From Nitrospirota bacterium (lineage in GTDB: Bacteria > Nitrospirota > UBA9217): a DNA stretch of 12,289 nucleotides. The notes under the pieces are model-generated. The model worked only from the letters and a program-made list of their open reading frames with translations, was not told the DNA's origin and ran no database searches. The DNA is taken from NCBI GenBank assembly GCA_017885365.1, contig JAFNGD010000350.1, positions 1 to 12,289 of the forward strand. Reading direction: 5' to 3'. Made by a program: the position numbers and the translations under genes. Shown here one piece after another: positions 148 to 12,289 of the stretch (within the stretch, counting starts at the first letter, position 1; each line of letters starts with the position of its first letter).

Positions 148-275
148 AAAATCCAAATCGCAAACTCCAAATTACAAATAAGCTCCAATCACCAAACGCC
201 AAATTCAATAGTTTGGGAAATTGTGATTTTGAGTTTGAATATTATTTGGGATTTGTTATTTGAGATTTGGAATTT
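148..275. repeat. AT-rich imperfect inverted repeat built of CAAAT-like units
   Basis: The left arm is made of repeated units such as CCAAAT, CAAACT and ACAAAT; the right arm carries their complements (ATTTGG, TTTGAG, GTTATTTG). Reverse-complementing 240..275 aligns with 148..181 at roughly three of four positions. Nested inner pairings are CCAAAC (192..197) with GTTTGG (211..216), and AATCAC (187..192) with GTGATT (223..228). The region is far more AT-rich than the genes on both sides and fills the whole junction between the fusion-protein stop and the ABC ATPase start. It could form a long cruciform or RNA hairpin inside the operon mRNA. No T-run typical of a terminator follows it. Its function is unknown. 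Confidence 0.75.
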
Positions 276-1371
276 ACTTTTCCGCCTCGATCCTCACCTT
301 TACACCGTCCTTCAGTCCTTCGGCTTCAGGCGTGGTGACAACGAACTCGCCGGCCTTCAGGCCGTTCCTGATCTCCGTGCTGACCCAGTTGCTTTCGCCG
401 ATCTCCACGGGCCGCAGGCGCACATGGGTCGTGGCACCGGGGGCAAGGCTCGCTCCTTCAGCGACATAGACCTGCTTCTTGCCCTCCCGCTCCACAATGG
501 CCTGGGATGGAGCGGACAGGACCCCCGTGAGCGTCGTGATGAGGATCTCGATGTCTGCGGACATCCCCGGCTTGATCCTGGCGTCCTTCGCGGTGAAATA
601 GATCCACACGTCCGCGGTCCGGGTCTCCAGCTTTCCGCCGCTCACGATGGGCGATATCCTCCTGATGGAGCCGCTGAACTTCTCGCCCGAGAACGCGTCA
701 ATACTGATGGCCACCGGCTGCCCCAGACGAAGCCGTCCCACGTCCACTTCATCGATGGTTGCCAGCACATAGATCCGGTCTGGGTCCACGACGGTCACGA
801 TCTGCTTCCCGGGCAGGAGCAGCTCGCCGACCTCCGTATATTTCTTCGACACCACGCCGCCATAGGGCGTCCTGATGATGGTATAGTCCTTCTTGACCTT
901 CACGTCGTCCCGGGAGGCTGCATACTGCGACCTCGCTACTTCAAAGGCTCTGCGCGCGCTGTCGAGGTCCTGCTGAGCGATCATGCCGCTCTGAAAGAGG
1001 TCTTCCGAGCGCTTCAGGTTCTTCTCCGTCTCCTCATAGGTGGCCCTGCTCTGGGCAAGGACGTTCTCGGACTGGACGGATTCTTCGGTCAGATCAAGCC
1101 GTGCGATCAGGTCTCCGGCCTTGACCCGGTCCCCTTCCCGCACCGGGAGCGTGACGACCCGTCCCGTGCGCTGTGCGGACAGCGTGACCTCGTATTCCGA
1201 CTTGACCGTCGACGTGGTCGTGGCATTCACGATAACCCGAAGCTCTCCCGGCTTCAGCTCGACGACCTTGACCGCCACCGGCTTCTTCCCGGCCATCAGG
1301 ACGATGAGGACAAGAACGGCTGCTACTGCAGCTGCCGCCCACGCGATCTTCTTGCTCCTGGGAGATATCAC
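274..1371 (-). CDS. Periplasmic adaptor / membrane fusion protein (MacA/HlyD family)
   Basis: 365 residues. It links an inner-membrane ABC or RND pump to a TolC channel across the periplasm. The layout fits the family: an N-terminal anchor (about 10-27, Ala/Val/Leu-rich), a first lipoyl half with the TGRVVTLPVREGDRVKAGD motif (69-87), an alpha-helical hairpin rich in Glu, Lys and Gln (about 96-160), the second lipoyl half (IIRTPYGGVVSKKYTEVGE, 165-183), a beta-barrel (about 200-280, with IKPGMSADIEI) and a membrane-proximal domain (about 285-365). The start is a GTG at 1371..1369. It overlaps the TGA of the SRPBCC gene (GTGA), and GGAG five bases upstream supports it. The overlap implies translational coupling. 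Next to a MacB/LolD-type ATPase it is most likely a MacA-like adaptor. Confidence 0.92.
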   Translation of the reverse strand: MISPRSKKIAWAAAAVAAVLVLIVLMAGKKPVAVKVVELKPGELRVIVNATTTSTVKSEYEVTLSAQRTGRVVTLPVREGDRVKAGDLIARLDLTEESVQSENVLAQSRATYEETEKNLKRSEDLFQSGMIAQQDLDSARRAFEVARSQYAASRDDVKVKKDYTIIRTPYGGVVSKKYTEVGELLLPGKQIVTVVDPDRIYVLATIDEVDVGRLRLGQPVAISIDAFSGEKFSGSIRRISPIVSGGKLETRTADVWIYFTAKDARIKPGMSADIEILITTLTGVLSAPSQAIVEREGKKQVYVAEGASLAPGATTHVRLRPVEIGESNWVSTEIRNGLKAGEFVVTTPEAEGLKDGVKVRIEAEK

Positions 1372-1826
1372 TTCTTCTCCACGCCTTCCTCAAGCTGCCA
1401 CTCGAGCTCGTTCTTGATGTTCTTGATGAACTTCTTTTTCACTTCCCGCAGCTTTTCCGCCACCACCATGTCCTGCAGCATGGCGAAGGGCCCGGTCACA
1501 TGCCCCTCCAGATGATAGACGACCTCGGTCACGTCATCGGATACCTTCCTGACGAAGACGTCCCCGGACATGTGGATGTCGCCTCCGCTCCCGATCCAGG
1601 AAAGCTGCTCAAATTCCTTATACACCGTGGTGTGGGTCTTTAGCTCCACCAGCCGGGCAAAGGGACCGAAGGTCACCCGCACCTTCCAGATCGCGTCCAG
1701 CTCATCCAGGATCTTGACGCCCTTGCATCCCGGGAACAGGCATCCCACTTCGTTCCGGTCCGACATGAACGACCAGACAGCTTTGACCGGGAGATTGACC
1801 CTGAACACTGATTCGACTTTCGGCAT
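1368..1826 (-). CDS. SRPBCC/START-like (CoxG-type) protein inside an exporter operon
   Basis: 152 residues with the look of the SRPBCC helix-grip fold. It starts VESVFRVNLPVKAVWSFMSD, where helix 1 follows the first strand, as in CoxG and polyketide cyclase-like proteins. The LFPGCKGVKIL turn (30-40) matches the CoxG-type 'PGC..V' signature. Beta strands follow, and a long amphipathic, Lys/Glu-rich C-terminal helix (about 119-148). The family binds hydrophobic ligands; CoxG itself anchors CO dehydrogenase. No signal peptide is visible, so it is probably cytoplasmic. The ATG at 1826 has AGGAG nine bases upstream. Its stop overlaps the GTG of the fusion protein, and the TolC-like gene lies 65 bases upstream, so it is firmly part of the exporter operon. 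The exact ligand is unknown; a lipid or hydrophobic cargo is inference. Confidence 0.8.
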   Translation of the reverse strand: MPKVESVFRVNLPVKAVWSFMSDRNEVGCLFPGCKGVKILDELDAIWKVRVTFGPFARLVELKTHTTVYKEFEQLSWIGSGGDIHMSGDVFVRKVSDDVTEVVYHLEGHVTGPFAMLQDMVVAEKLREVKKKFIKNIKNELEWQLEEGVEKK

Positions 1827-1851
1827 AGATGAATTCTCCTCGTGCGGCGGG

Positions 1852-1867
1852 ATCCTTCAAGAAGGAT
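1852..1867. other. Small perfect stem-loop between TolC-like and SRPBCC genes
   Basis: ATCCTTC and GAAGGAT are exact reverse complements separated by AA; as RNA this is a 6-bp stem with a CAAG or CUUG loop. It lies in the 65-base gap between the channel stop and the SRPBCC Shine-Dalgarno. No run of T follows on either strand, so it is not a convincing intrinsic terminator. It could be an mRNA-stability or processing hairpin, or chance. Confidence 0.35.
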
Positions 1868-1891
1868 GGGTTCCCGCACATGCATTATCTG

Positions 1892-3214
1892 TTACTCGCT
1901 GCTTTTCCAGCCCATGGCCTTCAGGAGCTGCGCGATCGCAAGGTGATAATCATACAGCGCCTTGATATGGTCCGTTTCTGCATTGACCGACGAAAGCTGG
2001 GCATCCGTCACTTCAATATAGGGTCCTACCCCTGCCTTATATCTGCCCTGGGCGATGTCGAGGTTCTCGCGGGCTTTCTGGAGGGTCTTTTCCATGACCT
2101 CCACCCGCGCGGCCGCGCTCTCGAGATCGGCAAAGGCCTGGTTCACCTCCAGGAGGATTGACTGCTTCATTGCGTCCCGCTGGGCTTCAATCGCAAGCAT
2201 GTTCCCACGCGCCTCAGCTACGCGGCCTTTTGTCAGGCCGCCCTGGAACAGGGGCAGGGTCAACATGATCCCGGCGTTCCAGCTGTTCTGGACATCGCCC
2301 TTGAACATCGTCCCCATGAACGGTCCCATCTCGGTACTGCCGTTCGCCCAGCTGTAGGCTGCGTTCGCCGAGAGCGTCGGAAGGTAATTCGATTGTTCGG
2401 CCCGGACACGGGACCTGGCCGCCTCGATGTCAGCCTCCATCCGTTTCATGTCCGGACGGTTCTGCAGGGCGTCGATCTGGGCCTGCTCCAGCGTCGGCAG
2501 CGCCGGGACCGTGGGAAGTGCTTCCACGATCTCCGTGGACCGTCCCGGGTCGATCCCCATGGCGTTGTTCAGGGCGATCGTCCTGATGCGAACACCGTTC
2601 TTTGCGTTGATCAGGCCCAGGTTCGCATTGTTCACTTCCACCTCGGCCCGCGTCACGTCGTATCTCGGTTTTGATCCCGCGCGAAAGAACGCCTCGGCCT
2701 GTTTCAGATGGCTTTCGGTCTGCTCGATCGTTTTCTGGGCGACCTCGACGAGCTTCTTAGCCGCTAGCAGCGCGTAATAGGACTGCTTGACGTTCAGCAC
2801 GACCTCCTGGTTGATACGGTCCGCGTCCCGCTCCAGCGACAGAGTACCCAATTTCGCTGCGTCATAGGCATTTCCGGTCTTCCCGAAGTCATAGAGCGTC
2901 TGGTTCATCGACAGGCTCGTGGTATAGCTCTTCGTTGTGCTATCTCCGAACGCCCCGCCCAGGGGTGCATGGCTCTCGGAATAGCCGGTACTTGCCGTAA
3001 GCTGGGGGAAATAGGGCGATGCCGCCTGGGTCTCCCGGCCCTGGCCTGCGCGGACGTTCTCCCGGGCGGCCCTGATTGCCGGTTGGTTCTTAAGCGCCGT
3101 TTCGATGCATTCCTTCAGGGAGAGTTTTTCCGCTGCATGGCCATCGTCAAGCGCACTGATTGCCGGCCACAGGATCGCGAGAACGAGCAGGGCTGATCGG
3201 GCGCTCTTAGCCAT
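1892..3214 (-). CDS. TolC-family outer-membrane efflux channel
   Basis: 440 residues from the chosen ATG at 3214..3212. An N-terminal signal peptide (MAKSARSALLVLAILWPAIS, then a HAA/E cleavage-like site near residue 28) directs it to the envelope. The mature protein shows the two tandem OEP repeats of the TolC fold. The first has LSLKECIETALKNQPAIRAA (31-50), and Ala/Glu/Gln-rich coiled-coil helices follow. The second has LEQAQIDALQNRPDMKRMEA and, later, TLPLFQGGLTKGRVAEA. Near the end come GRYKAGVGPYIEVTDAQ and a helical tail. Length is normal for the family. An in-frame ATG at 3244 would add ten polar residues before the signal peptide and lies upstream of the probable transcription start, so it is less likely. 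It leads the exporter operon and provides the outer-membrane exit. Confidence 0.93.
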   Translation of the reverse strand: MAKSARSALLVLAILWPAISALDDGHAAEKLSLKECIETALKNQPAIRAARENVRAGQGRETQAASPYFPQLTASTGYSESHAPLGGAFGDSTTKSYTTSLSMNQTLYDFGKTGNAYDAAKLGTLSLERDADRINQEVVLNVKQSYYALLAAKKLVEVAQKTIEQTESHLKQAEAFFRAGSKPRYDVTRAEVEVNNANLGLINAKNGVRIRTIALNNAMGIDPGRSTEIVEALPTVPALPTLEQAQIDALQNRPDMKRMEADIEAARSRVRAEQSNYLPTLSANAAYSWANGSTEMGPFMGTMFKGDVQNSWNAGIMLTLPLFQGGLTKGRVAEARGNMLAIEAQRDAMKQSILLEVNQAFADLESAAARVEVMEKTLQKARENLDIAQGRYKAGVGPYIEVTDAQLSSVNAETDHIKALYDYHLAIAQLLKAMGWKSSE

Positions 3215-3220
3215 AGTTCG

Positions 3221-3229
3221 AGTATAACA
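3221..3229 (-). promoter_or_regulatory. Extended -10 promoter of the TolC-like operon
   Basis: On the minus strand the sequence reads TGTTATACT: the TGn extension plus TATACT, five of six matches to TATAAT. No good -35 is present at 16-18 bases (GGTAAA), as is common for extended -10 promoters. The hexamer ends six bases before the ATG at 3214, so transcription would begin at or next to the start codon, giving a leaderless mRNA. No Shine-Dalgarno precedes this ATG, consistent with that reading. Confidence 0.5.
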
Positions 3230-3238
3230 TAGATGCTG

Positions 3239-3267
3239 TTGCATTTACCCGGGAGGTATTGTATAAG
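3239..3267 (+). promoter_or_regulatory. Sigma-70-like promoter of the PAP2-like gene
   Basis: TTGCAT (3239..3244), a 17-base spacer and TATAAG (3262..3267) match a sigma-70 promoter. The -10 ends five bases before the ATG at 3273, so the transcript would start at or beside the start codon. GGGAGG (3251..3256) lies 16 bases upstream of the ATG, too far for a standard ribosome site, and AGAGG (3266..3270) is only two bases from it. The -35 region overlaps where the opposing TolC promoter would need its -35, so polymerase binding is probably mutually exclusive. Confidence 0.5.
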
Positions 3268-3272
3268 AGGTC

Positions 3273-4178
3273 ATGCGCTGGACCTTCAAACCGGTCGACC
3301 TGCTCTCGATCGCCTTCATCGCGCTCCTGGCCGTTGTCACGCTGATCGCGTGGCCGCGGCTGCCCCATGCGGGTTGGCTCTTCGCCCGCTTCGTCGCGCT
3401 TATTTTCGCGTTACTCATCGTCGCCCGCTCCGCGGCGCATCAGGAAGCTCCGAAACTGGCGGGAACGCTCCATGCCTTCCTGCCGGTCCTGTTCGTCCCG
3501 GTCCTGTTCGACAGCATGGGAGATATCATTCCCTGGGTCTGGCTCCGGACCTTCGACGACCTGCTCATCAGGGCCGACTTCCGCCTCTTCGGGGGTCACC
3601 ACCCCACGGTCCTGCTCGAACGGTTCGTCCATCCCCTGCTGACCACGGTGCTGCAGTTCGCCTACATCAGCTATTATCCCATGGCCATTGTCCTGGGCGC
3701 CGTGCTCTTCCTGAAAAAGAACGAGACCGCCTTCGACGAGGCGATCTTCGGCATCATCCTTTGCTTCTACCTGTCCTACCTCGGCTACCTGCTGGTCCCT
3801 GCCGTCGGCCCCCGTTTCACCCTCGCGCATCTGCAGACCCGCGACCTTGCGGCCGGCCCGCTTGTCACGGCCATCCAGGAAACGCTGAACGCCCTCGAGA
3901 ACACCAAGACCGATGCGTTCCCGAGCGGCCATACCGCCGTCGCCCTGATGACGCTCTTCTACGCACGGAAGTTCCGGGAGCGGATCCTGACCTCCCTGCT
4001 CCTGCCGGCGGTGACCGGGCTCATCCTATCCACGGTGTATCTTCGCTACCACTACGTCATCGATGTCATTGCAGGCATCGCGCTGGCGGTGCTCACCGTG
4101 TACCTTGCCCCGCCGCTCTACGCCTGGTGTCTACGCACTGCCGGCAAACCGCGCGATCAGTTCCATCACCCCGCCTGA
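3273..4178 (+). CDS. PAP2-superfamily membrane enzyme, Aur1/inositol-phosphorylceramide-synthase-like
   Basis: 301 residues, strongly hydrophobic with about six or seven membrane segments (roughly 10-27, 36-52, 66-80, 124-146, 157-176, 240-256, 262-283). The lipid-phosphatase catalytic motifs are present: GPR (179-181) in the first position, AFPSGHTAV (215-223) with the catalytic His220, and LRYHYVIDVIAG (257-268) with His260 and Asp264. The RYHYxxDxxAG form and the VPAVGPR loop resemble the Aur1/PAP2_3 branch, which includes enzymes moving phospho-headgroups onto ceramide, rather than classic PgpB. The start is fixed by an in-frame TAA at 3264. It is the only plus-strand gene and converges on a lipid-kinase-like gene, overlapping it by 48 bases. 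It could be a plain lipid phosphate phosphatase; substrate choice is inference from the adjacent ceramide genes. Confidence 0.85.
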   Translation: MRWTFKPVDLLSIAFIALLAVVTLIAWPRLPHAGWLFARFVALIFALLIVARSAAHQEAPKLAGTLHAFLPVLFVPVLFDSMGDIIPWVWLRTFDDLLIRADFRLFGGHHPTVLLERFVHPLLTTVLQFAYISYYPMAIVLGAVLFLKKNETAFDEAIFGIILCFYLSYLGYLLVPAVGPRFTLAHLQTRDLAAGPLVTAIQETLNALENTKTDAFPSGHTAVALMTLFYARKFRERILTSLLLPAVTGLILSTVYLRYHYVIDVIAGIALAVLTVYLAPPLYAWCLRTAGKPRDQFHHPA

Positions 4179-4724
4179 GACCAGCGGGATCACGAGGTTG
4201 TCGTTAACGCGCAGGGGGACCAGTTCCACACCCGCGGCCACGAACGCTCCTGCCGCGATGAGGCCGGGCGCAAGGTGGATGCCGGCCAGCGGGAGCGCCA
4301 GCCCGGAGGCAACGGCAATGACCGCGAATGCCAGGGTCCCTTCCAGGCTTTTATCACCGACGATCTTCGTCCGTCCGTACCGCTCCCCCACGGTCGTCGC
4401 CGCCACATCGCCGAATGCGAGAAAACAGATGGCAGCCGTGGCGATATCGGTACGGTAGAACAACAGCGTCAACCCGATGCCGAGCACATAGGGCGCCGTC
4501 CCGGTGATTTTGTTCGCCTCGTTCTTCCGGATGAAGCTGCTGAACCGCGCCTGGATGAACCGATTGAACGCGGGCACACGAAGGCGGGTGATATCGACGG
4601 CAAGAACGACCAGGACGAGGAGACCGTAGCAGACCAGCGCGTTCCGCCTGCCCAGCAGATAATAGAGCGAAAGCAGGCCGAGCCCGCCGAAGAGGTGGTA
4701 GAGCTTGCGTCCGATATGCTTCAT
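4131..4724 (-). CDS. Diacylglycerol/polyprenol kinase family membrane protein (SEC59/VTE5/DGK1-like)
   Basis: 197 residues with about six hydrophobic segments. It shows the family landmarks of CTP-dependent dolichol, phytol and diacylglycerol kinases: an N-terminal RKLYHLFGGL (6-15), a FGDVAATTVGERYGRTKI block (104-121), KSLEGTLAF (125-133) and NDNLVIPLVSGG (174-185). These enzymes phosphorylate a lipid alcohol at the inner membrane. The ATG at 4724 gives the expected N-terminus, though no clear Shine-Dalgarno is seen. It lies 89 bases after the bCerS-like gene, with a repeat in between, and is probably the last gene of the ceramide unit. Its TAG stop is inside the tail of the opposing PAP2-like gene. 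A role as ceramide or long-chain-base kinase is plausible from context; phytol, polyprenol or diacylglycerol kinase remain alternatives. Confidence 0.8.
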   Translation of the reverse strand: MKHIGRKLYHLFGGLGLLSLYYLLGRRNALVCYGLLVLVVLAVDITRLRVPAFNRFIQARFSSFIRKNEANKITGTAPYVLGIGLTLLFYRTDIATAAICFLAFGDVAATTVGERYGRTKIVGDKSLEGTLAFAVIAVASGLALPLAGIHLAPGLIAAGAFVAAGVELVPLRVNDNLVIPLVSGGVMELIARFAGSA

Positions 4725-4738
4725 AGTTTAGGGACGGC

Positions 4739-4802
4739 AAAGGGCAGAGGGCATAGCGCAGAGACGGAAACAAAAACTTAACCCTATGCTCCATGCTCCT
4801 TG
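4739..4802. repeat. Imperfect inverted repeat of GCATAG/GGAG-type units
   Basis: The left arm (4739..4758, AAAGGGCAGAGGGCATAGCG) pairs imperfectly with the right arm (4782..4802): the reverse complement of the right arm contains AAGG-GCAT-GG-GCATAGGG in the same order. An A-rich loop (GGAAACAAAAACTTAA) separates them. Related short units recur outside the arms (GCATAGTGCA on the minus strand near 4800..4809; GCATAGCGCA at 4751..4760). It fills most of the 89 bases between the bCerS-like and kinase-like genes. It resembles degenerate low-complexity intergenic repeats rather than a terminator. Function unknown. Confidence 0.6.
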
Positions 4803-4813
4803 CACTATGCTGG

Positions 4814-5926
4814 TCAAAGCCTTTTCTCGTAGATCCGGTACTTCTTGTACAGTTTCCCGCCCATGAGCTCGCAGCCGCGCTGCATGAGGATGTTGTCCTC
4901 CAGCACCCAGGACATCTCTGCGCGCTCATAGCCTTTCTTCATGGCTGCTTTGAAGGACTCGAGGTAAAGCAGGCCCTCGATGCCTTTCTTGCGGTATTCC
5001 TCTTTCACCCCCATGGTGAGCACGCGGATGTCGGAGATCTTCCGGGAGTACCACAGGAACTTCAGGATGCCGATAGGCCCCAGCCGCCCATTGACCCGGC
5101 GCAGGACCTGGTTGTAGTCCGGCACAGCCATGAAGAATGCTGCGGGGGCGCCGTTCACCTCGACCATGATCAGCAGTTCCGGCGCGATGAGCGGCTTGAG
5201 GCGCTTCGCCATGGACTCGATCTCCTCATCGGTCATGGGGACGAACCCCCAGTTGTGGCTCCATGCCGAGTTGTAGATGTCCTTCACGGTCTCCAGCTCG
5301 CGTCGGAAGTCCTTCATGTTCGCCGGCCGCACCGTAAGGCCGGGCACCCGAGCCTTCACCCCGGAGGCGAGCCGTTCGAGCCTGCCGCCGGCCGAGACCT
5401 CCGGGATTACCGAAATATACGCATAGAGGTCCTTGGCCTTTTCCATGCCGCAGCGCTCCATGTGGTCAAGATAGTACCGGGGCGTATAGGTCATCATGAT
5501 CATCGGCGGGGAATCGAACCCTTCGAGCAGGAACCCGCATTCGTCGTTCGTGGAAGGGTTTATGGGCCCGCGCATGACCTCGATGTCGCGCGCCTTCAGC
5601 CATGCCGATGCCGCGTCCAGGAGCCCGCAGGCAATGGCGGGGTCAGGAAGACATTCGTAGAACCCGAAGAATCCCGCCTGTTCGTTGTGCGTATTGATGT
5701 GATTGCGGTCGATGATGGCGGCGATGCGGCCAACGATGTTTTCCCCCTCTTTCGCAAGGAAGTAGGCGGCCTCGGCGTGATGGAAGAACGGGTTCTGCTC
5801 GCCGAGGATGAACTCCATCTCGCTGATGAGCGGCGGTACCCAGTTCGCGTTCCCCTCATACACGGCCCAGGGGAACCGAATGAACTGGCCGAGGCCCTTT
5901 TTATCGGAAATAAGTTCGATCTGCAT
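4814..5926 (-). CDS. bcerS: GNAT-fold N-acyltransferase of the YghO / bacterial ceramide synthase family
   Basis: 370 residues. The family is recognised from GPINPSTNDECGFLLEGFD (120-138), followed by PPMIMMTYTPRYYLDHM (140-156), and from the C-terminal block AEMSWVLEDNILMQR (336-350) ending in KKYRIYEKRL. A GNAT acyl-CoA-binding-like strand/turn/helix is seen at VLTMGVKEEYRKKGIEGLL (302-320). Proteins of this YghO-like group include the bacterial ceramide synthase bCerS described in Caulobacter, which transfers a fatty acyl chain to the amine of 3-ketosphinganine. The ATG at 5926 has AGGA four bases upstream. The neighbours Spt-like (upstream) and CerR-like support the ceramide role; from sequence alone only 'GNAT acyltransferase' is certain. 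It is separated from spt by 412 bases holding a broken small gene and a repeat, so its own promoter is possible but was not identified. Confidence 0.78.
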   Translation of the reverse strand: MQIELISDKKGLGQFIRFPWAVYEGNANWVPPLISEMEFILGEQNPFFHHAEAAYFLAKEGENIVGRIAAIIDRNHINTHNEQAGFFGFYECLPDPAIACGLLDAASAWLKARDIEVMRGPINPSTNDECGFLLEGFDSPPMIMMTYTPRYYLDHMERCGMEKAKDLYAYISVIPEVSAGGRLERLASGVKARVPGLTVRPANMKDFRRELETVKDIYNSAWSHNWGFVPMTDEEIESMAKRLKPLIAPELLIMVEVNGAPAAFFMAVPDYNQVLRRVNGRLGPIGILKFLWYSRKISDIRVLTMGVKEEYRKKGIEGLLYLESFKAAMKKGYERAEMSWVLEDNILMQRGCELMGGKLYKKYRIYEKRL

Positions 5927-6026
5927 ACGTTCCTGCTAGCGTAATGCGTCCAACGCTTCTTTACTTAAACAGTCTCTCTTCTTGAAAAGAGGGATATTGC
6001 AGTCCTTCCCGCTCATGAGGTTCGAA

Positions 6027-6104
6027 CCACCTCCCCAACCCCTCCTTGGCAAGGAGGGGCAGTAAATAGTCCCTCCCCTTGCGAAGGGGAGGTCAGGCGG
6101 GGTG
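6027..6104. repeat. GC-rich tandem double hairpin (REP/BIME- or MITE-like)
   Basis: Two near-perfect palindromes sit side by side. In 6039..6059, CCCCTCCTTG pairs with CAAGGAGGGG around one G; in 6072..6092, CCTCCCCTT pairs with AAGGGGAGG around GCG. They are separated by an AT-rich linker (CAGTAAATAGT). The two halves are themselves inverted copies: the reverse complement of 84..104 in this block (CACCCCGCCTGACCTCCCCTT) resembles 6028..6047 (CACCTCCCCAACCCCTCCTT). This symmetric layout is typical of dispersed palindromic elements. As RNA it would be a very stable barrier or stabiliser between spt and bcerS. Confidence 0.75.
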
Positions 6105-6149
6105 ATTTCATTTGAATTGCATGGATAAAGTAATTTATGACTCACTACA

Positions 6150-6329
6150 CTAAGAGTACCGCTCAGCGATGGAATGAAGGATAATACCAGCGGTGAGAAT
6201 TCCGGTATAAGTCATAAGACCTATCCACAATCCGTATTCACTCCCCGTTATGAACCCGATGCCAAACAATCCCATAACGAGAAAAGCAGCGGTTACTCAG
6301 ACAACGTAATATTTTACTATTGGCCTCAT
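6150..6329 (-). pseudogene. Small two-segment membrane protein ORF broken by an in-frame TGA
   Basis: Nine bases after the spt stop, an ATG (6329..6327) preceded by AAGGCGG opens MRPIVKYYVV and then hits TGA (6299..6297). The same frame continues without another stop for 48 codons to a TAG at 6152..6150. It encodes two hydrophobic stretches: VTAAFLVMGLFGIGFITG and YGLWIGLMTYTGILTAGIIL, ending in HSIAERYS. Reading through the TGA would give a coherent 59-residue protein with two membrane segments, so this looks like a small gene of the spt operon with a recent nonsense change (from TGG or CGA). Alternatively a shorter 41-residue product starts at the ATG at 6275, but no ribosome site is seen there. 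TGA is used as a normal stop by several neighbours, so recoding is unlikely. The family is not recognised. Confidence 0.5.
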
Positions 6330-6338
6330 TCCGCCTTT

Positions 6339-7517
6339 TTAAATCACACCCAGTTTCTTCCCTGCCTGCTCCAGGATGACCAGCACCCGGTCGAGCTGTG
6401 CATCGGTATGGGTCGCCATGTAGCTCGTGCGGATGAGGCAGCGTCCCGGCGGTGTTGCCGGGGGGGCGACGGGGTTCACGAAAACGCCCTCATCGCTCAG
6501 GATCTTCCACATCATGAAGGCCCGTTCCATCTCGCCCATGAGCAGCGGGATGATGGGCGTCTCCGAGGTCCCGGTGTCGAACCCCATCTTCTTGAAGGCC
6601 TTCATCATCTTGTGCGTATTATGCCAGAGGTGTTCTCTCAGCTCCGGCTCCTGATCGATGACGTCGAGGGCGGCGATGACGGACGCCACCGAGGCCGGCG
6701 GAGGGCTCGCCGAGAAGATGAGCGGCCGGGACGTATGTTTGATGTAGTGGATCACGTCCTCGCTCGCCGCCACGAACCCGCCGATGGAGGCCATGGACTT
6801 GCTGTAGGTCCCCATGATGATGTCCACGTCCTTCTCGAGCCCGAAATGCTCGGCCGTCCCGCGGCCCGTCTTCCCCAGCACGCCGACGCCGTGGGCGTCG
6901 TCCACCATCAGCCGCGCACCGTACTTCTTGCACACTTTGACGATGTCCGGCAGCGGCGCAATGTCCCCTTCCATGCTGTACACGCCGTCGACGACCACGA
7001 GCTTGCCCCGGTCCCCGCACTCGGAGAGCACGAACTCGAGACTGTTCATGTCGTTGTGCTTGAATTTCTTGACATCGGCATAGGACAGCCGGCAGGCGTC
7101 GATGATGCTGGCGTGGTCCAGCTTGTCGATGACAATGACGTCATCCTTGCCGGCAATGGACGAGATGATGCCGAGGTTTGTCTGGTAGCCGGTGGAGAAG
7201 GTCAGGGCGTTCTCCTTCCGGAAGAACTTGGCCAATTTCTCCTCGAGCTGCACATGGATATCAAGGGTGCCGTTCAGGAAGCGCGAACCGGCGCAGCCGC
7301 TCCCGTACTTCTTCACCGCCTCGATGGCCGCTTCCTTCACCTTGGGGTGGCTCGTAAGGCCGAGGTAGTTGTTCGAGCCGAGCATGATCATCTTCTTGCC
7401 CTCAACCATGACCTCGGGGTTCTGCTCCGATTCCACAACGCGGAAGTATGGATAGAATCCGGCGGCCATCACCTCTTTTGCCGCGGTGTACTTCGTGCAC
7501 TTTTCAAAAAGATCCAA
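6339..7517 (-). CDS. spt: Serine palmitoyltransferase-type alpha-oxoamine synthase
   Basis: 392 residues, soluble, fold-type I PLP enzyme. It condenses an amino acid, here probably L-serine, with a fatty acyl thioester and loses CO2; in Spt this gives 3-ketosphinganine, the first step of sphingolipid synthesis. Visible landmarks are MLGSNNYLGLTSHP (45-58), GSGCAGSRFLNGTLDIHVQ (72-90), LDHASIID (133-140) with the PLP-stacking His135, VDDAHGVGVLG (205-215) with Asp206 and His209, and GTYSKSMASIGGF (236-248) with the PLP lysine Lys240. Near the end NPVAPPATPPGRCLIRTSYM and ATHT match Spt-like members rather than BioF or Kbl. The start is TTG at 7517..7515, backed by GGGAGG seven bases upstream and by an N-terminus (LFEKC...GFYPYF) usual for Spt. 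It lies 44 bases downstream of cerR and upstream of bcerS. Cysteate-using (sulfonolipid) relatives cannot be excluded. Confidence 0.87.
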   Translation of the reverse strand: MDLFEKCTKYTAAKEVMAAGFYPYFRVVESEQNPEVMVEGKKMIMLGSNNYLGLTSHPKVKEAAIEAVKKYGSGCAGSRFLNGTLDIHVQLEEKLAKFFRKENALTFSTGYQTNLGIISSIAGKDDVIVIDKLDHASIIDACRLSYADVKKFKHNDMNSLEFVLSECGDRGKLVVVDGVYSMEGDIAPLPDIVKVCKKYGARLMVDDAHGVGVLGKTGRGTAEHFGLEKDVDIIMGTYSKSMASIGGFVAASEDVIHYIKHTSRPLIFSASPPPASVASVIAALDVIDQEPELREHLWHNTHKMMKAFKKMGFDTGTSETPIIPLLMGEMERAFMMWKILSDEGVFVNPVAPPATPPGRCLIRTSYMATHTDAQLDRVLVILEQAGKKLGVI

Positions 7518-7524
7518 TGTACTG

Positions 7525-7530
7525 CCTCCC
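7525..7530 (-). promoter_or_regulatory. Strong ribosome binding site for the TTG start of spt
   Basis: On the minus strand GGGAGG is followed by seven bases (CAGTACA) and TTG. The strong site at ideal spacing decides for the rare TTG at 7517 over the internal ATG at codon 17, which would remove the conserved N-terminus. Confidence 0.75.
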
Positions 7531-7561
7531 TCTCATCCCATAAGGAATATCGCTGACCTGA

Positions 7562-8563
7562 TCAGCGGACCCAACCTGCTTCACGGTACCATTTCCAGGT
7601 GCGCTCGAGTCCCTGCTCCAGCGGAACGCCTGCGCTGAAACCAAGATCGTCACGGGTCCTGCCCAGGTCGCAGGTCCAGTATTGCTGGACCGCCTCCCGG
7701 ACCTTCTGTCGGCTCATGATCGTTGCCTTGCCTCGGAGGGCGCCGGCCGCCTCGGACAGCGCTCCAATGGCATATCCCATCCAAACCGGCACCTTGATGA
7801 CCTTCGCGTTCACGCCGCCGGTCCGCTGCAGCGCCTGGTGGAATTCCGTCGTTGAATATACCCGATCCTCGGCGACGAAATATCTGCTGCCGCTCGGGAC
7901 CGTCCGTTCCCCGGCCAGCAGAAGCGCCTCGGCCAGGTCCTCCACGTAGCACCAGTTCAGGAAGCGCTCCCCACCCCGTAGGTCGAGGATGAGACCCTTT
8001 GACGCCCACGTGAACAATTCGAACACATCGGTATCGCGCGGGCCGTACACCGCAGCGGGCCGGAGGATCACGATCGGGAACCGTTCCCGGAAGCGGAGCG
8101 TCTCCGCCTCGCTAAGAAGCTTGCTCCTCCCGTAATCCGATACCGGCCGCGGAAGGTCGGTATCCCGTACCGGCCTGCCGTCAACGGCGGGACCGGCCGC
8201 GGCAAGACTGGAGACCAGGATGAACTTCCTGAGCCCGGGGTTGTGACGGCCGCACGCCTCGAGGAGGTTCCGGGTGCCGATATGGTTCACCTCGTAATAA
8301 TCGCGCGGACGGTACGACTTGGTAAGCCCGGCGACATGATACACGACCGCGGCATTCCTGACCGCAGCGGCAAGCGAACCAGGGTCCGAACAATCACCAA
8401 CGACCACGCGGACCTTCAGGCCCTTCAACCAGCGGTGCCTGGCCGGGTCCCGTATGAGGCAGGTGACATCGTAGCCCCTGCGGAGCAGCAGCTCAACGAG
8501 GTGGCTCCCCACGAATCCGGTGCCGCCGGTGACCAGGACCGTGCCGGTAACATTTTGTTTCAT
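7562..8563 (-). CDS. cerR: NAD(P)-dependent epimerase/dehydratase-fold reductase, probable ceramide reductase
   Basis: 333 residues, extended short-chain dehydrogenase. The N-terminal Rossmann motif is VLVTGGTGFVGSHL (9-22); then come VVVGDCSD (53-60), VYHVAGLTKSYRP (74-86), the catalytic Ser in ILVSSLAAAG (115-124) and the YGRSK catalytic pair Tyr144/Lys148, then ILRPAAVYGPRDTD (166-179). The C-terminal half, which binds substrate, is less recognisable. In bacterial ceramide synthesis a protein of this fold, CerR, reduces the keto group of the N-acylated product; the position directly before spt and in the same unit as a bCerS homologue argues for that role. Other family members act on nucleotide sugars (for example HpnA-like), so the assignment is context-dependent. 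The ATG at 8563 is chosen: an upstream GTG at 8587 lies at or before the predicted transcription start and adds only non-conserved residues. No strong Shine-Dalgarno is seen. Confidence 0.72.
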   Translation of the reverse strand: MKQNVTGTVLVTGGTGFVGSHLVELLLRRGYDVTCLIRDPARHRWLKGLKVRVVVGDCSDPGSLAAAVRNAAVVYHVAGLTKSYRPRDYYEVNHIGTRNLLEACGRHNPGLRKFILVSSLAAAGPAVDGRPVRDTDLPRPVSDYGRSKLLSEAETLRFRERFPIVILRPAAVYGPRDTDVFELFTWASKGLILDLRGGERFLNWCYVEDLAEALLLAGERTVPSGSRYFVAEDRVYSTTEFHQALQRTGGVNAKVIKVPVWMGYAIGALSEAAGALRGKATIMSRQKVREAVQQYWTCDLGRTRDDLGFSAGVPLEQGLERTWKWYREAGWVR

Positions 8564-8591
8564 ATGATATCGCTGCCGAAAAAGCACCGAC

Positions 8592-8633: not shown

Positions 8634-9608
8634 TTAGCGGTGGTTTTTTATATCCTCAGGAAGCGGACAGGCACCGTTCTCAGCGCACCGTTCACATTCG
8701 AACTGAATGGTGCTGTGGAGGATCTTGTAGCGCTCCGCAAGCCTCTGCCTGATGGCGTCGAGCAGTTCCCTGCTGCCGCTTACCGGCATGTCATCGACGA
8801 CGACATGGGCGCTCAAGGCATAGACGCCGGAGGTGATGGTCCACACATGGATATGATACGCTTCCTTGACGCCGTCAAGCTCTTGAATGTCCGCCGCGAT
8901 CGCGGCCACGTTGATATGCGCAGGGGCCGACTCCAGGAGGATGTTCACGGACTCGGTTACCAGCCCATAGGAACCGATCATGATCCCGATCGCTATCAGG
9001 ATACTCAGGATCGGGTCGATGAGATACCATCCCGAGTAATAGATCACTATTCCACCGATGATGACGCCCACCGACGAGATCGCGTCGCCGATGATATGCA
9101 GAAAGGCACCGCGGATGTTCAGGCTGGTCTCGTGGTGTTTGACCAGGAACAGGGCGCCGAAGATATTGGCGATGAGGCCGATGACCGCGACGGCCAGCAT
9201 CAGCGTCCCCTGCACCGGGGGCGGGTTCAGGATGCGCTGATAGGCCTCGAACATGATATAGAGCGAGATGATCACCAGGGTGATCCCGTTCAGGAAGGCT
9301 GCGAGGATCTCAAGGCGGTAAAACCCGAAGGTCTTCCTGTCCGTGGCGGGCATATCAGCAAACTTCATGGCTAAGAACGACAGGGCGAGGGCCAGGGTGT
9401 CCGTGAACATATGACCGGCGTCGGAAAGGAGGGCAAGGCTGTTCGACAGGAGACCGCCGATGATCTCGGCGATCATCATGAACAGGGTGATCGTGAGGGC
9501 GATCAGGAGGCCTTTCCTCCCCCCTGCAGCCGCGTGGGAGTGACCGTGCGCGTGTTCATGGCCATGTTCCTGGTCGTGGTGCGTGTTGTGTCGCGAAGGC
9601 AGTGTCAT
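8634..9608 (-). CDS. Cation diffusion facilitator (CzcD/ZitB-type Zn/Cd/Co exporter)
   Basis: 324 residues from the ATG at 9608. It exports divalent metal from the cytoplasm in exchange for protons. The N-terminus is a His-rich loop (HHDQEHGHEHAHGHSH, 10-25). Six membrane segments follow, with the two metal-site pairs of the family: SDAGHMFTD (His66/Asp70) in TM2 and HIIGDAISS (His171/Asp175) in TM5. The cytoplasmic C-terminal domain (about 215-303) holds the usual YHIHVWTITSG (251-261) and ends with a Cys-bearing tail (Cys305, Cys308, Cys314). These His/Asp pairs indicate Zn-type selectivity. Its ATG overlaps the TGA of mqnA (ATGA), so translation is probably coupled. The reading frame stays open upstream, but the family N-terminus and the overlap fix the start here. 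Confidence 0.95.
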   Translation of the reverse strand: MTLPSRHNTHHDQEHGHEHAHGHSHAAAGGRKGLLIALTITLFMMIAEIIGGLLSNSLALLSDAGHMFTDTLALALSFLAMKFADMPATDRKTFGFYRLEILAAFLNGITLVIISLYIMFEAYQRILNPPPVQGTLMLAVAVIGLIANIFGALFLVKHHETSLNIRGAFLHIIGDAISSVGVIIGGIVIYYSGWYLIDPILSILIAIGIMIGSYGLVTESVNILLESAPAHINVAAIAADIQELDGVKEAYHIHVWTITSGVYALSAHVVVDDMPVSGSRELLDAIRQRLAERYKILHSTIQFECERCAENGACPLPEDIKNHR

Positions 9609-10426
9609 ATATTCTTTTTCCAGAACCGGAGCTCCGGCACGGCATCGATAGCCCCCAGTTCCGCCGCGTACCCGTAGTAGGTCAGGAGCCCCTTCTGCTC
9701 CTCGGGACCGAAGTCGTAGCTGAAGCAGTTCCAGTACTGCAAAAGCATATCGGCAGAGATCCCGAAACCTGCGGCGTGCCCGTCCGCCAGCTCGCGCAGG
9801 CGGGACAAACCGTACTGTTTTGACTCCGTGAGAATATCGGCAAGCCGTGCCAGGTCCTGTTCGATCGTCTTCCGGTAGTTCACCTGCCACAGTGCGAACA
9901 CAAAGGGCAGGCCGGTCTGCTGATGCCAGAGGTCACCGAGGTCATAGGCATGAGGGAAACGGGGACTGACGGAACGCTTGAGGGCGAGGTCGCCGATGGT
10001 CAGGACCGCGTCCGCCTGGTCGTAGGGATCCTCTACTCCCTGCTCGTACAGCATGAAATCGGGGTTCACGCCGGTAAAGAGCTCAAGGATCACCCTAAGC
10101 AGGACGACCGATGTGGCCGATGCCGTGGTCAGGGCCACGGTCTTTTTGTTCAACTCGTCCAGGGGGACCCGGCTCTCGAGCAGGATGCTCATGACCTTGT
10201 TCCGGGATGTGATCGACAGGCCGGACAGGATGCGGTACTTGCCCGGGTAGGTTGCATACTCGATCGATGACGACGGAGAAACATCGATCTTGCCCTCCAC
10301 GAGGGCCCGGTTCAATTCGGAAGGGATACCTTCCACGATCGGAAAAGGACAGGCGACCTTCCCGGTCAGGATCCCGGCATGGACCGGGAAGCAGTTTGAA
10401 TAGATTATGTGGCCCAGTTTCAGCAT
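9605..10426 (-). CDS. mqnA: Chorismate dehydratase of the futalosine menaquinone pathway
   Basis: 273 residues, periplasmic-binding-protein-like fold. MqnA removes water from chorismate to give 3-[(1-carboxyvinyl)oxy]benzoate, the entry step of futalosine-dependent menaquinone synthesis. Landmarks are LGHIIYSNCFPVHAGI (4-19), GIPSELNRALVEGKIDVSP (33-51) followed by SSSIEYA (52-58), the SATSV ligand loop (103-107), LTIGDLALK (142-150) and YDLGDLWHQQTGLPFVFALW (161-180). Length is normal. The start is the ATG at 10426, which gives the standard MLKLGHI N-terminus; GGTGGG about nine bases upstream may serve as ribosome site. No other menaquinone gene is in the window; its partner is a metal exporter, so the coupling is probably positional rather than functional. 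Confidence 0.92.
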   Translation of the reverse strand: MLKLGHIIYSNCFPVHAGILTGKVACPFPIVEGIPSELNRALVEGKIDVSPSSSIEYATYPGKYRILSGLSITSRNKVMSILLESRVPLDELNKKTVALTTASATSVVLLRVILELFTGVNPDFMLYEQGVEDPYDQADAVLTIGDLALKRSVSPRFPHAYDLGDLWHQQTGLPFVFALWQVNYRKTIEQDLARLADILTESKQYGLSRLRELADGHAAGFGISADMLLQYWNCFSYDFGPEEQKGLLTYYGYAAELGAIDAVPELRFWKKNI

Positions 10427-10497
10427 AAGTATCTGCCCACCATATATAAATATGCAGCCAATACCATCACGTAACACTGGAGGTTATTGAATGAATG

Positions 10498-10506
10498 ATT
10501 ATATCA
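10498..10506 (-). promoter_or_regulatory. Extended -10 promoter upstream of mqnA, inside a palindrome
   Basis: The minus strand reads TGATATAAT, a perfect TGn plus TATAAT. It lies in the 87-base gap between the RND stop and mqnA; transcription would start near 10491, leaving a leader of about 65 bases. No good -35 was found. The hexamer is embedded in the perfect palindrome AATGAT-TAT-ATCATT (10494..10508), which could be an operator. Confidence 0.5.
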
Positions 10507-10513
10507 TTTATTA

Positions 10514-12289
10514 TCAATTAGTTACGCTTTTCTTTCTAAACTTATTCTCCATGTCATCGATCAGGGTATAAATAACCGGTACGACCACCAGAGTTAGCAG
10601 TGTCGACGTGATCAGGCCACCGATGACCGCAATGGCCATAGGTGCCCGGGACTCCGCTCCCTCTCCGATCTTCAGGGCTGTCGGCAGCATGCCGAAGACC
10701 ATGGCTGCTGTGGTCATAATGATCGGCCGGAGCCGAACAGGACCGGCTTTTAACAGCGCCTCATCCCGCCCCATTCCCCTGCTCCGAAGCGTAATGGTAT
10801 AGTCGACGAGCAGGATCGCGTTCTTGGTCACCAGGCCCATGAGCATGATGACGCCGATAAGGCTGAAGATGCTGATCCGCTCTCCCGTGACCAAAAGGAG
10901 CCCCATGGCGCCGATGAGGCTCACCGGCAGCGAGAACATGATCGTGAAGGGGTGGACAAAGCTCTCGAACTGCGACGCCAGGATCATATAGACCATGATC
11001 ACGGCGATGATCAGGGCAAAGGCGATGTTCTTGAAGGCATCCAGCATGGCGTCTGCCATGCCCACATACCGGGTGGAAATGTCAGGGCTTGTGTTCTTCT
11101 TGACGATCTTGTTGAGATCCGCCATGGCCTCGGCCATGGGCTTGGTCTTTTCCGTTCCCGCGAACAACGTGGCGGCCCGCTGCCGGTTATAGTGCATGAT
11201 GAGGGTGGGACCCTTCCCGGTCTCGATGCGGGTAACATCCTTCATGCGCACCAGTTCGCCCGTCGACGAGCGGACCCAGAGCGCTTCCAATGCCGACGGC
11301 CGGTCCCGTTCGGCCTCCGTCAGCCGTGCCGTGATGTCATAACGCTCGCCTTCTTTTTCGTCCTTATACTTCCCGATGATCTCCCCGCCGATCATGGTAT
11401 TGACCGTAGCGCCGATGGCGGCCGCGCTTACGCCGAGGTTCGCAGCCCGATCGCGATCGATGTGCACCCGGACCTCAGGCTTGCCTGTCTCGATCGAGGT
11501 ATCGACATCAACGATGCCGGGCAGTTTTGCGAACTCGTCCCTGATGGCGATCGTCCGCATCGTAATATCGTCGAGGTCCCGGCCCTGGATCATGAGTTGG
11601 ATCGGCACGGACCGCATGCCGCCTCCTACCATGGCGATCATTTCCACCGACGACTTCATGTCGGGGACCTTTGAGACCCGGTCCCGGACCTGCTTCATGG
11701 AGTCGATCTGGACGATCTGCCGGTCCTTCCGCTCCTTCATATTCACGAAGATCCTGCTCTTGTTGACATCGGGAGTGAGGTCGGAACCGGTGACATAGAA
11801 GGTGCTCAGTATCTCCGGCCGCAGGCGGAGCTGCTCGTCGATCTTCCGCATGGAGCTGTCGGCGCGCAACAGCGAATAGTCGATGGGCGTCTCCAGCCTG
11901 ACCATGTATCGTCCCTGGTCCTCGGCCGGCATGAATTCCTTCCCCAGAACGGCAAAGAGCGCGAGGCCGGCCGCGACGCTTGCCAAGGCCAAGACGATGA
12001 CCTTCCAGCGGTTCCGGAGCGCCCATGCAAGAAGCGGTCGATAGACGCCGAACACCGCGTCGAACCCTCTCTCGAGGAACATATAGACCTTGCCGTGCTT
12101 CTTGGTGTAGCTCAGGAAACGCGAGGTCAGCATGGGCGTGAGCGTCAGGGAAACGAACAGGGAGATCAGGACCGCAACCGTGACCGTGATCCCGAACTCG
12201 AAGAAGAACTTGCCCACGATGCCCTTCATGAACGCCACGGGCACGAAGACCGCCACGATGGACAGGGTGGTGGCCATGACCGCCAGGCC
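10514..12289 (-). CDS. RND efflux pump inner-membrane transporter, HAE1/AcrB family (C-terminal part)
   Basis: 592 residues are visible; the frame stays open to the window edge (GLAV before the ATG at 12277), so the N-terminal 440 or so residues of a typical 1030-residue pump are missing. The pump uses the proton gradient to expel hydrophobic or amphiphilic compounds through an adaptor and TolC. Counting from the Met at 12277: the end of the first membrane half (VAVFVPVAFMKG, 8-19; FFFEFGITVTVAVLI, 24-38), TM7 (about 92-111) followed by LGKEFMPAEDQG (111-122), the second porter/docking domain (about 125-410), then TM8-12, including MGLVTKNAILLVDYTI (480-495) with the proton-relay Lys485, and RLRPIIMTTAAMVFGMLPTA (515-534). 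The stop is TGA at 10516..10514. The TM4 Asp pair would be outside the window. Confidence 0.94.
   Translation of the reverse strand, partial: GLAVMATTLSIVAVFVPVAFMKGIVGKFFFEFGITVTVAVLISLFVSLTLTPMLTSRFLSYTKKHGKVYMFLERGFDAVFGVYRPLLAWALRNRWKVIVLALASVAAGLALFAVLGKEFMPAEDQGRYMVRLETPIDYSLLRADSSMRKIDEQLRLRPEILSTFYVTGSDLTPDVNKSRIFVNMKERKDRQIVQIDSMKQVRDRVSKVPDMKSSVEMIAMVGGGMRSVPIQLMIQGRDLDDITMRTIAIRDEFAKLPGIVDVDTSIETGKPEVRVHIDRDRAANLGVSAAAIGATVNTMIGGEIIGKYKDEKEGERYDITARLTEAERDRPSALEALWVRSSTGELVRMKDVTRIETGKGPTLIMHYNRQRAATLFAGTEKTKPMAEAMADLNKIVKKNTSPDISTRYVGMADAMLDAFKNIAFALIIAVIMVYMILASQFESFVHPFTIMFSLPVSLIGAMGLLLVTGERISIFSLIGVIMLMGLVTKNAILLVDYTITLRSRGMGRDEALLKAGPVRLRPIIMTTAAMVFGMLPTALKIGEGAESRAPMAIAVIGGLITSTLLTLVVVPVIYTLIDDMENKFRKKSVTN

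What the first reader, a model, noticed from the sequence alone, without database searches (positions are those of the whole stretch)
4131..8563. Compact bacterial ceramide (sphingolipid) synthesis locus with a kinase
Seen: an Spt-type PLP enzyme, a YghO/bCerS-like GNAT and a CerR-like reductase on one strand behind one good promoter, with a lipid-kinase-like gene at the end. Known: Spt, bCerS and CerR are the three enzymes of bacterial ceramide synthesis, and in several bacteria they are scattered. Inferred: this organism makes ceramides and may phosphorylate them with an SEC59/DGK1-like kinase, a family not usually named as a bacterial ceramide kinase.
Basis: partly seen in the sequence, partly recalled or inferred. 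Interest (0 to 1): 0.8.

Follow-up and report, generated by a model that had tools for sequence, protein, structure and literature searches.

The report
Ceramide gene cluster with AUR1-like enzyme
An uncultured bacterium carries a compact set of genes for making ceramide-type membrane lipids, and beside them lies a gene shaped like the fungal enzyme that caps ceramides with a polar head, a partner that is more constant in relatives than the kinase-like gene first noticed.

Summary
In detail: on the minus strand lie an SDR reductase (8587-7562), an Spt-like enzyme (7517-6339), a YghO/bCerS-like GNAT (5926-4814) and a small kinase-like membrane protein (4724-4131). The ceramide-backbone reading is supported: the Spt-like protein groups with two solved SPTs, apart from BioF/Kbl paralogues (100/100), and the order SDR-Spt-GNAT recurs in 45 of 69 informative loci. 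Such clusters are already described from many phyla.

The kinase-like gene may well be CTP-dependent, but 'ceramide kinase' is not supported: it touches ceramide genes in 12 of 28 Nitrospirota genomes that have it, in two arrangements, and not in 16. Diacylglycerol left by head-group transfer, a sphingolipid, or a polyprenol are possible substrates. The 'one good promoter' is no better than chance. A new variant of a known kind.

The parts
7562..8587 (-). CerR-like SDR (NAD-dependent epimerase family)
   Evidence: PF01370 E=9.8e-39; 29% to the SDR beside acp-spt on a Sphingomonas plasmid; 40% to the SDR of a Rubrobacter Spt-GNAT-SDR row
6339..7517 (-). Spt-like alpha-oxoamine synthase
   Evidence: NCBIfam SPT model 576.6 bits, cut-off 640; PDB 3a2b 431 bits; tree with SPTs apart from BioF/Kbl 100/100
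5927..6338 (.). 412-bp gap between Spt and GNAT; on the minus strand no ORF over 69 aa lies within it
   Evidence: no repeat found by the repeat finder
4814..5926 (-). YghO/bCerS-like GNAT N-acyltransferase
   Evidence: 36% to E. coli YghO from residue 8 to the end; 33% to the N-acetyltransferase in the Sphingomonas spt region
4131..4724 (-). kinase-like membrane protein, SEC59/DGK1-type by source names
3273..4178 (+). AUR1/IPC-synthase-like PAP2_3 protein, convergent with the row and the likeliest head-group enzyme

Best explanation
This is a sphingolipid locus of a Nitrospirota bacterium. The Spt-like enzyme condenses an amino acid (probably serine) with a fatty acyl thioester to a 3-keto base, the bCerS-like GNAT adds the second acyl chain and the CerR-like SDR reduces the keto group, giving a (dihydro)ceramide. 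The convergent AUR1-like PAP2_3 enzyme then moves a phospho-head-group from a glycerophospholipid onto the ceramide through a His/His/Asp site, releasing diacylglycerol. The kinase-like protein is a CTP-using lipid kinase that serves the module in this branch; its most economical job is to turn that diacylglycerol back into phosphatidate. Shown: gene content, family likeness, predicted fold, conserved residues, linkage, co-inheritance. Inferred: every reaction and substrate, the head group and the kinase's role.
For: Spt-like protein with SPTs, 100/100 against BioF/Kbl rows. GNAT full-length like YghO and like the acyltransferase of a Sphingomonas spt region. SDR-Spt-GNAT in 45 of 69 loci with enough DNA. 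PAP2 and GNAT in 148 Nitrospirota genomes: 48 and 57, both 44 (Fisher 3e-21); in 198 Desulfobacterota genomes: 26 and 49, both 24 (3e-15). PAP2 fold AUR1 first by Foldseek, VIA-align and profile. Kinase gene touching Spt or GNAT and converging on PAP2 in two arrangements, 12 of 28 genomes.
Against: No lipid data. Spt score lies under the NCBIfam cut-off (576.6 against 640), and a BioF/Kbl structure (8s1y, 329 bits) comes close to the second SPT (2x8u, 336). PAP2 scores 36 bits on the phosphoinositol dihydroceramide synthase model, cut-off 480; in 3 of 10 relatives the LpxE phosphatase model scores better. 13 of 57 GNAT genomes in Nitrospirota and 25 of 49 in Desulfobacterota lack this PAP2. 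Fisher tests ignore ancestry. The kinase gene goes with GNAT no more than by chance (13 of 28, p=0.39), and DgkA, which could do the recycling, is in 23 of 28.
Confidence: 0.62

Rival explanations
1. One reading: the kinase-like protein phosphorylates ceramide or the sphingoid base, a new family of bacterial ceramide kinase, and the PAP2 protein acts later or as a phosphatase on its product.
For: Gene directly behind Spt or GNAT in 12 of 28 genomes; 16 of 18 genomes with the closer form (over 195 bits, a line drawn after seeing the scores) have GNAT or PAP2, none of the 10 with remoter forms do; a Caulobacter ceramide kinase exists in another family (PMC10331486, passages).
Against: Absent from 44 of 57 GNAT genomes; sits away from ceramide genes in 16 of 28; no DAGK/LCB5 domain found.
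Confidence: 0.25
2. The kinase-like protein is a polyprenol or other isoprenoid kinase of the mqnA-CDF-TolC locus, and the ceramide genes merely settled around it.
For: Between CDF and TolC without ceramide genes in six genomes (mqnA seen in five; G005's contig begins inside CDF) and beside mqnA and TolC in three more; the window has the same outer genes.
Against: A second arrangement, Spt-kinase-PAP2, in six genomes has none of mqnA, CDF or TolC in the stretch.
Confidence: 0.3
3. The PAP2_3 protein is a lipid phosphatase (LpxE or PgpB like) and not a head-group transferase.
Against: IPC synthases align over 254 and 261 residues, the other PAP2 rows over 202 or fewer; tight co-inheritance with the ceramide genes.
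Confidence: 0.25
4. The Spt-like enzyme uses alanine, glycine or cysteate, so the product is a 1-deoxy or sulfono lipid without the hydroxyl that the PAP2 enzyme needs.
For: PMC11334938 reports 1-deoxy and sulfono-1-deoxyceramides and names Desulfobacterota among likely producers (passages); amino-acid choice was not tested here.
Against: Closest solved relatives are SPTs; cysteate-C-fatty acyltransferase 28eh scores 255 bits against 431.
Confidence: 0.15

Closest known systems
Bacterial Spt/bCerS/CerR clusters (Caulobacter and, by genes, many phyla in PMC11334938)
   Same: The three backbone enzymes; clustering is described there (passages)
   Different: In Caulobacter cerS lies in another operon and acp and aasR genes belong to the set (PMC11324152, passages); here GNAT stands directly behind Spt and no acp-sized minus-strand gene of known family was seen between them
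Bacteroides phosphoinositol dihydroceramide synthase BT_1522, found by likeness to yeast AUR1 (PMC9246714, passages)
   Same: PAP2_3 protein with IPC-synthase fold beside or co-inherited with a ceramide pathway
   Different: 36 bits on that family's model, cut-off 480; inositol-phosphate synthase is absent from the 12 Nitrospirota genomes that share GNAT, PAP2 and kinase gene
SEC59/DGK1-type CTP-dependent lipid kinases
   Same: Names given to relatives and a CTP-using fold as best match
   Different: No curated family match for the window protein; no substrate known
Bacterial sphingolipid kinases CpgB (Caulobacter) and DhSphK1 (Porphyromonas)
   Same: A lipid kinase gene in a bacterium with ceramide genes
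   Different: CpgB is soluble with an LCB5/DAG-kinase domain (PMC10331486, passages) and DhSphK1 resembles sphingosine kinase (PMC9045371, abstract); the window protein is helical, membrane-like and of another family

Membership tests
Bacterial serine palmitoyltransferase (Spt) | Groups with proven SPTs, apart from BioF/Kbl | tested here: met
   41-row tree, 100/100; the 2x8u row has a very long branch
Bacterial serine palmitoyltransferase (Spt) | Score over the NCBIfam equivalog cut-off | tested here: not met
   576.6 bits, cut-off 640; still the best model for it. Hence I write Spt-like
Bacterial serine palmitoyltransferase (Spt) | Uses L-serine | not testable with these tools
   Needs the enzyme
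bCerS/YghO family | Full-length likeness to YghO-type proteins | tested here: met
   36% over residues 8-370 to E. coli YghO; 33% to the protein in a Sphingomonas spt region
bCerS/YghO family | Linked to Spt | tested here: met
   Spt directly upstream in 62 of 74 loci with enough DNA
bCerS/YghO family | Falls in the clade of proven bCerS proteins | not tested
   No proven bCerS sequence was at hand; no tree was made
CerR | SDR like the one beside spt in known producers | tested here: met
   29% to the Sphingomonas SDR beside acp-spt; 37% over 171 residues only to a Roseomonas SDR
CerR | Periplasmic location (Caulobacter) | tested here: inconclusive
   By eye the Rossmann motif starts within 20 residues of the N-terminus and no signal peptide is plain; no predictor was run
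AUR1/IPC-synthase-like PAP2_3 | IPC-synthase fold | tested here: met
AUR1/IPC-synthase-like PAP2_3 | Conserved His/His/Asp site | tested here: met
   H220, H260, D264 invariant in 25 rows, aligned with AUR1
Phosphoinositol dihydroceramide synthase (NF052609) | Score over the curated cut-off | tested here: not met
   36.4 bits, cut-off 480; best of the models for 7 of 10 relatives, all far under. Not filed as a member
Phosphoinositol dihydroceramide synthase (NF052609) | Inositol-phosphate synthase in the genome | tested here: not met
   None in the 12 genomes with GNAT, PAP2 and kinase gene, the window's nearest kin; present in 31 of all 44 with GNAT and PAP2
SEC59/DGK1 CTP-dependent lipid kinase | CTP_transf_1-type sequence and fold | tested here: inconclusive
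CpgB-type ceramide kinase | LCB5/DAGK catalytic domain | tested here: not met
   No Pfam match up to E=10

The most novel reading that the evidence does not exclude
Nitrospirota and Desulfobacterota cap their ceramides with a eukaryote-style AUR1-like transferase that is inherited together with the bacterial ceramide pathway, and one Nitrospirota branch couples it to a Dgk1-like CTP-dependent kinase that recycles the released diacylglycerol (or phosphorylates the ceramide itself), with a head group other than inositol.
Probability: 0.25. Interest if true: 0.75.

Novelty: new variant of a known kind. Interest (0 to 1): 0.52.

Why it matters
Spt-like genes are now reported from about 40 phyla (PMC11334938, passages), but head-group enzymes are known for few of them (my judgement). 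A PAP2_3 enzyme that goes with the pathway in two phyla is a concrete candidate, and whether a lineage can use inositol can be read from its genome. If the kinase-like protein works with it, that would be a CTP-dependent step in bacterial sphingolipid making.

Tried and rejected
Ceramide kinase as the constant partner: rejected by its distribution. Kinase gene as a stand-in for DgkA: not supported, DgkA is in 23 of 28 genomes with it. One-promoter operon: not above chance. ACP gene in the Spt-GNAT gap: the longest minus-strand ORF there has 69 aa and was not searched. Rfam at gathering scores: no match in the window. PDB sequence search with the kinase protein up to E=10, and with the PAP2 protein alone up to E=1: none. 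Downstream of GNAT in Elusimicrobiota, Ignavibacteria and WOR-3 loci no shared head-group gene was evident: one ORF of each of 15 ORF families was read by eye from its first 80 residues; most looked like housekeeping genes, and one, about 5 kb off in 9 loci, like an LpxL-type acyltransferase (recalled likeness, no scan).

Literature: (ten searches, the cap) listed no paper that I could recognise as describing a SEC59/DGK1-like bacterial ceramide kinase or an AUR1-like enzyme in Nitrospirota or Desulfobacterota; listings were cut (10 of 1,390), and most subscription papers are not held.

Rows dropped or chosen: GNAT 59 genomes reported, G055 (18 residues at a contig edge) and G090 (partial, E=9e-12) dropped, 57 used; PAP2 57 reported, 9 with E above 1e-30 dropped, 48 used. 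For adjacency in Desulfobacterota 24 of the 34 PAP2 places were given, the other 10 being weaker or second copies. In the Spt tree L139 (fragment), L022 and L033 (doubles) were left out. In the kinase tree L141 bears the label 'other' although it has mqnA and TolC beside it. The 195-bit line for the closer kinase form was drawn after seeing the scores.

Full report
What is there. On the minus strand, in the order of transcription: SDR reductase 8587-7562, Spt-like enzyme 7517-6339, a 412-bp gap, GNAT 5926-4814, kinase-like membrane protein 4724-4131. On the plus strand, tail to tail with the last and overlapping it by 48 bp, a PAP2_3 protein 3273-4178. Outside lie RND, mqnA and CDF genes on one side and TolC, SRPBCC and a periplasmic adaptor on the other. 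The window's own genome is not held; the nearest relatives with a title are Nitrospirota (L001-L005; names), so I take the source to be one.

The backbone enzymes. The Spt-like protein scores best on the NCBIfam SPT model of the Bacteroidota kind, 576.6 bits, under its cut-off of 640. Among solved proteins: SPT 3a2b 431 bits, SPT 2x8u 336, a BioF/Kbl enzyme (8s1y) 329, Kbl 3tqx 279, cysteate-C-fatty acyltransferase 255, BioF 5jay 244; so bit scores alone separate the second SPT from the first BioF/Kbl only narrowly. A tree of 41 rows does it better: nine paralogues from eight of the relatives' genomes and 7poa stand apart from the Spt-like rows and both SPT structures with 100/100 (2x8u has a very long branch). 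Seven of the nine paralogues were scanned, and each scores best on a BioF or BioF/Kbl model. The GNAT aligns with E. coli YghO from residue 8 to its end (36%) and with the N-acetyltransferase in the spt region of a Sphingomonas plasmid (33%). The SDR is 29% identical to the SDR beside acp-spt there, 40% to the SDR of an Spt-GNAT-SDR row in Rubrobacter and 37% over only 171 residues to one in Roseomonas.

Conserved order. A scan of genome contigs with the GNAT alignment gave 129 confirmed places, of which the best 80 were kept. Spt lies directly upstream in 62 of 74 with enough DNA, SDR-Spt-GNAT in 45 of 69, a convergent PAP2_3 gene within 1.2 kb downstream in 23 of 71, the kinase-like gene in 5 of 80. 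[quoted passage not shown] the loci here differ from that.

PAP2_3 is the more constant partner. In 148 Nitrospirota genomes 57 have the GNAT, 48 the PAP2 and 44 both (Fisher 3e-21). By the places listed, 7 of the 44 pairs lie within 1 kb; the rest lie apart or on other contigs, so this is not mere neighbourhood. Of the four PAP2 genomes without a counted GNAT (G047, G055, G059, G075), G055 has a GNAT fragment at a contig edge. Thirteen GNAT genomes lack the PAP2. In 198 Desulfobacterota genomes 49 have GNAT, 26 PAP2, 24 both (3e-15); of 24 PAP2 places examined 15 lie within 100 bp of the GNAT gene, 13 of them convergent; 25 of 49 GNAT genomes lack it. These tests ignore shared ancestry: as a yardstick, DgkA against GNAT gives 3e-7, with odds ratio 6.6 against 74 for PAP2.

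Inositol. Inositol-phosphate synthase (PF01658) is in 31 of the 44 Nitrospirota genomes with GNAT and PAP2, the kinase-like gene in 12, both in none, neither in one. In one of the 31 (G120, L165) synthase, a CDP-alcohol phosphatidyltransferase and PAP2_3 lie within 4 kb. In Desulfobacterota the synthase goes with PAP2 (22 of 26, p=0.005) and not with GNAT (30 of 49, p=0.74). An inositol head group is therefore plausible in other branches and less so in the window's; ancestry may explain the split.

How it most likely works. Backbone by Spt-like enzyme, GNAT and SDR; in Caulobacter acylation is thought to come before reduction (PMC11087976, passages). Head group by AUR1-like transfer, leaving diacylglycerol. 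Kinase: CTP-dependent recycling of that diacylglycerol is the most economical link, inferred only; a sphingolipid or a polyprenol as substrate is about as likely.

Known or new. Clusters of the three backbone genes are described in many phyla (PMC11334938, passages). The AUR1-like companion in Nitrospirota and Desulfobacterota and the CTP-kinase-like gene did not turn up in the searches named under Tried and rejected. I rate this a new variant of a known kind.

Noticed in passing
window 274-3244 and 8634-12277: RND-mqnA-CDF on one side and TolC-SRPBCC-adaptor on the other form a locus that stays together, with the kinase-like gene but without ceramide genes, in several Nitrospirota genomes: the ceramide genes may have settled into, or left, this site.
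   Followed up: partly
L165 (G120) 4459-8422: Inositol-phosphate synthase, CDP-alcohol phosphatidyltransferase, a nucleotidyltransferase/HepT pair and PAP2_3 on one strand: looks like an inositol-lipid cluster in a Nitrospirota genome.
   Followed up: partly
L161 (G168) 2-2946 and L162 (G238) 1-2158: In two Desulfobacterota genomes inositol-phosphate synthase, a YdjM-like protein and a remoter PAP2_3-type protein stand in a row; the PAP2 of L162 was not scanned with Pfam.
   Followed up: partly
L112, L114, L116, L118: In Nitrospirota with inositol-phosphate synthase the PAP2_3 gene follows a small conserved gene (NYN-like by recall), in two of the four loci near gmk- and coaBC-like genes (names recalled from the letters).
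   Followed up: no
L159 (Rubrobacter radiotolerans plasmid) 4701-8068: Spt-, GNAT- and SDR-like genes in one row on an actinobacterial plasmid, beside an LTA-synthase-family gene.
   Followed up: partly
window 5980-6130: GC-rich CCTCCCC...GGGGAGG stretch in the Spt-GNAT gap, like a scattered intergenic element; the repeat finder found no repeat within the gap.
   Followed up: no
window about 112-300: An ORF begins with IQIANSKLQISSN...WDLLFEIWNLLF-like letters, the look of a translated intergenic repeat (recalled, not tested).
   Followed up: no
NC_000913.3 3129043-3130215 (L119): E. coli K-12 YghO is annotated as a putative DNA-binding regulator, although it is 36% identical to this acyltransferase-type GNAT.
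   Followed up: no
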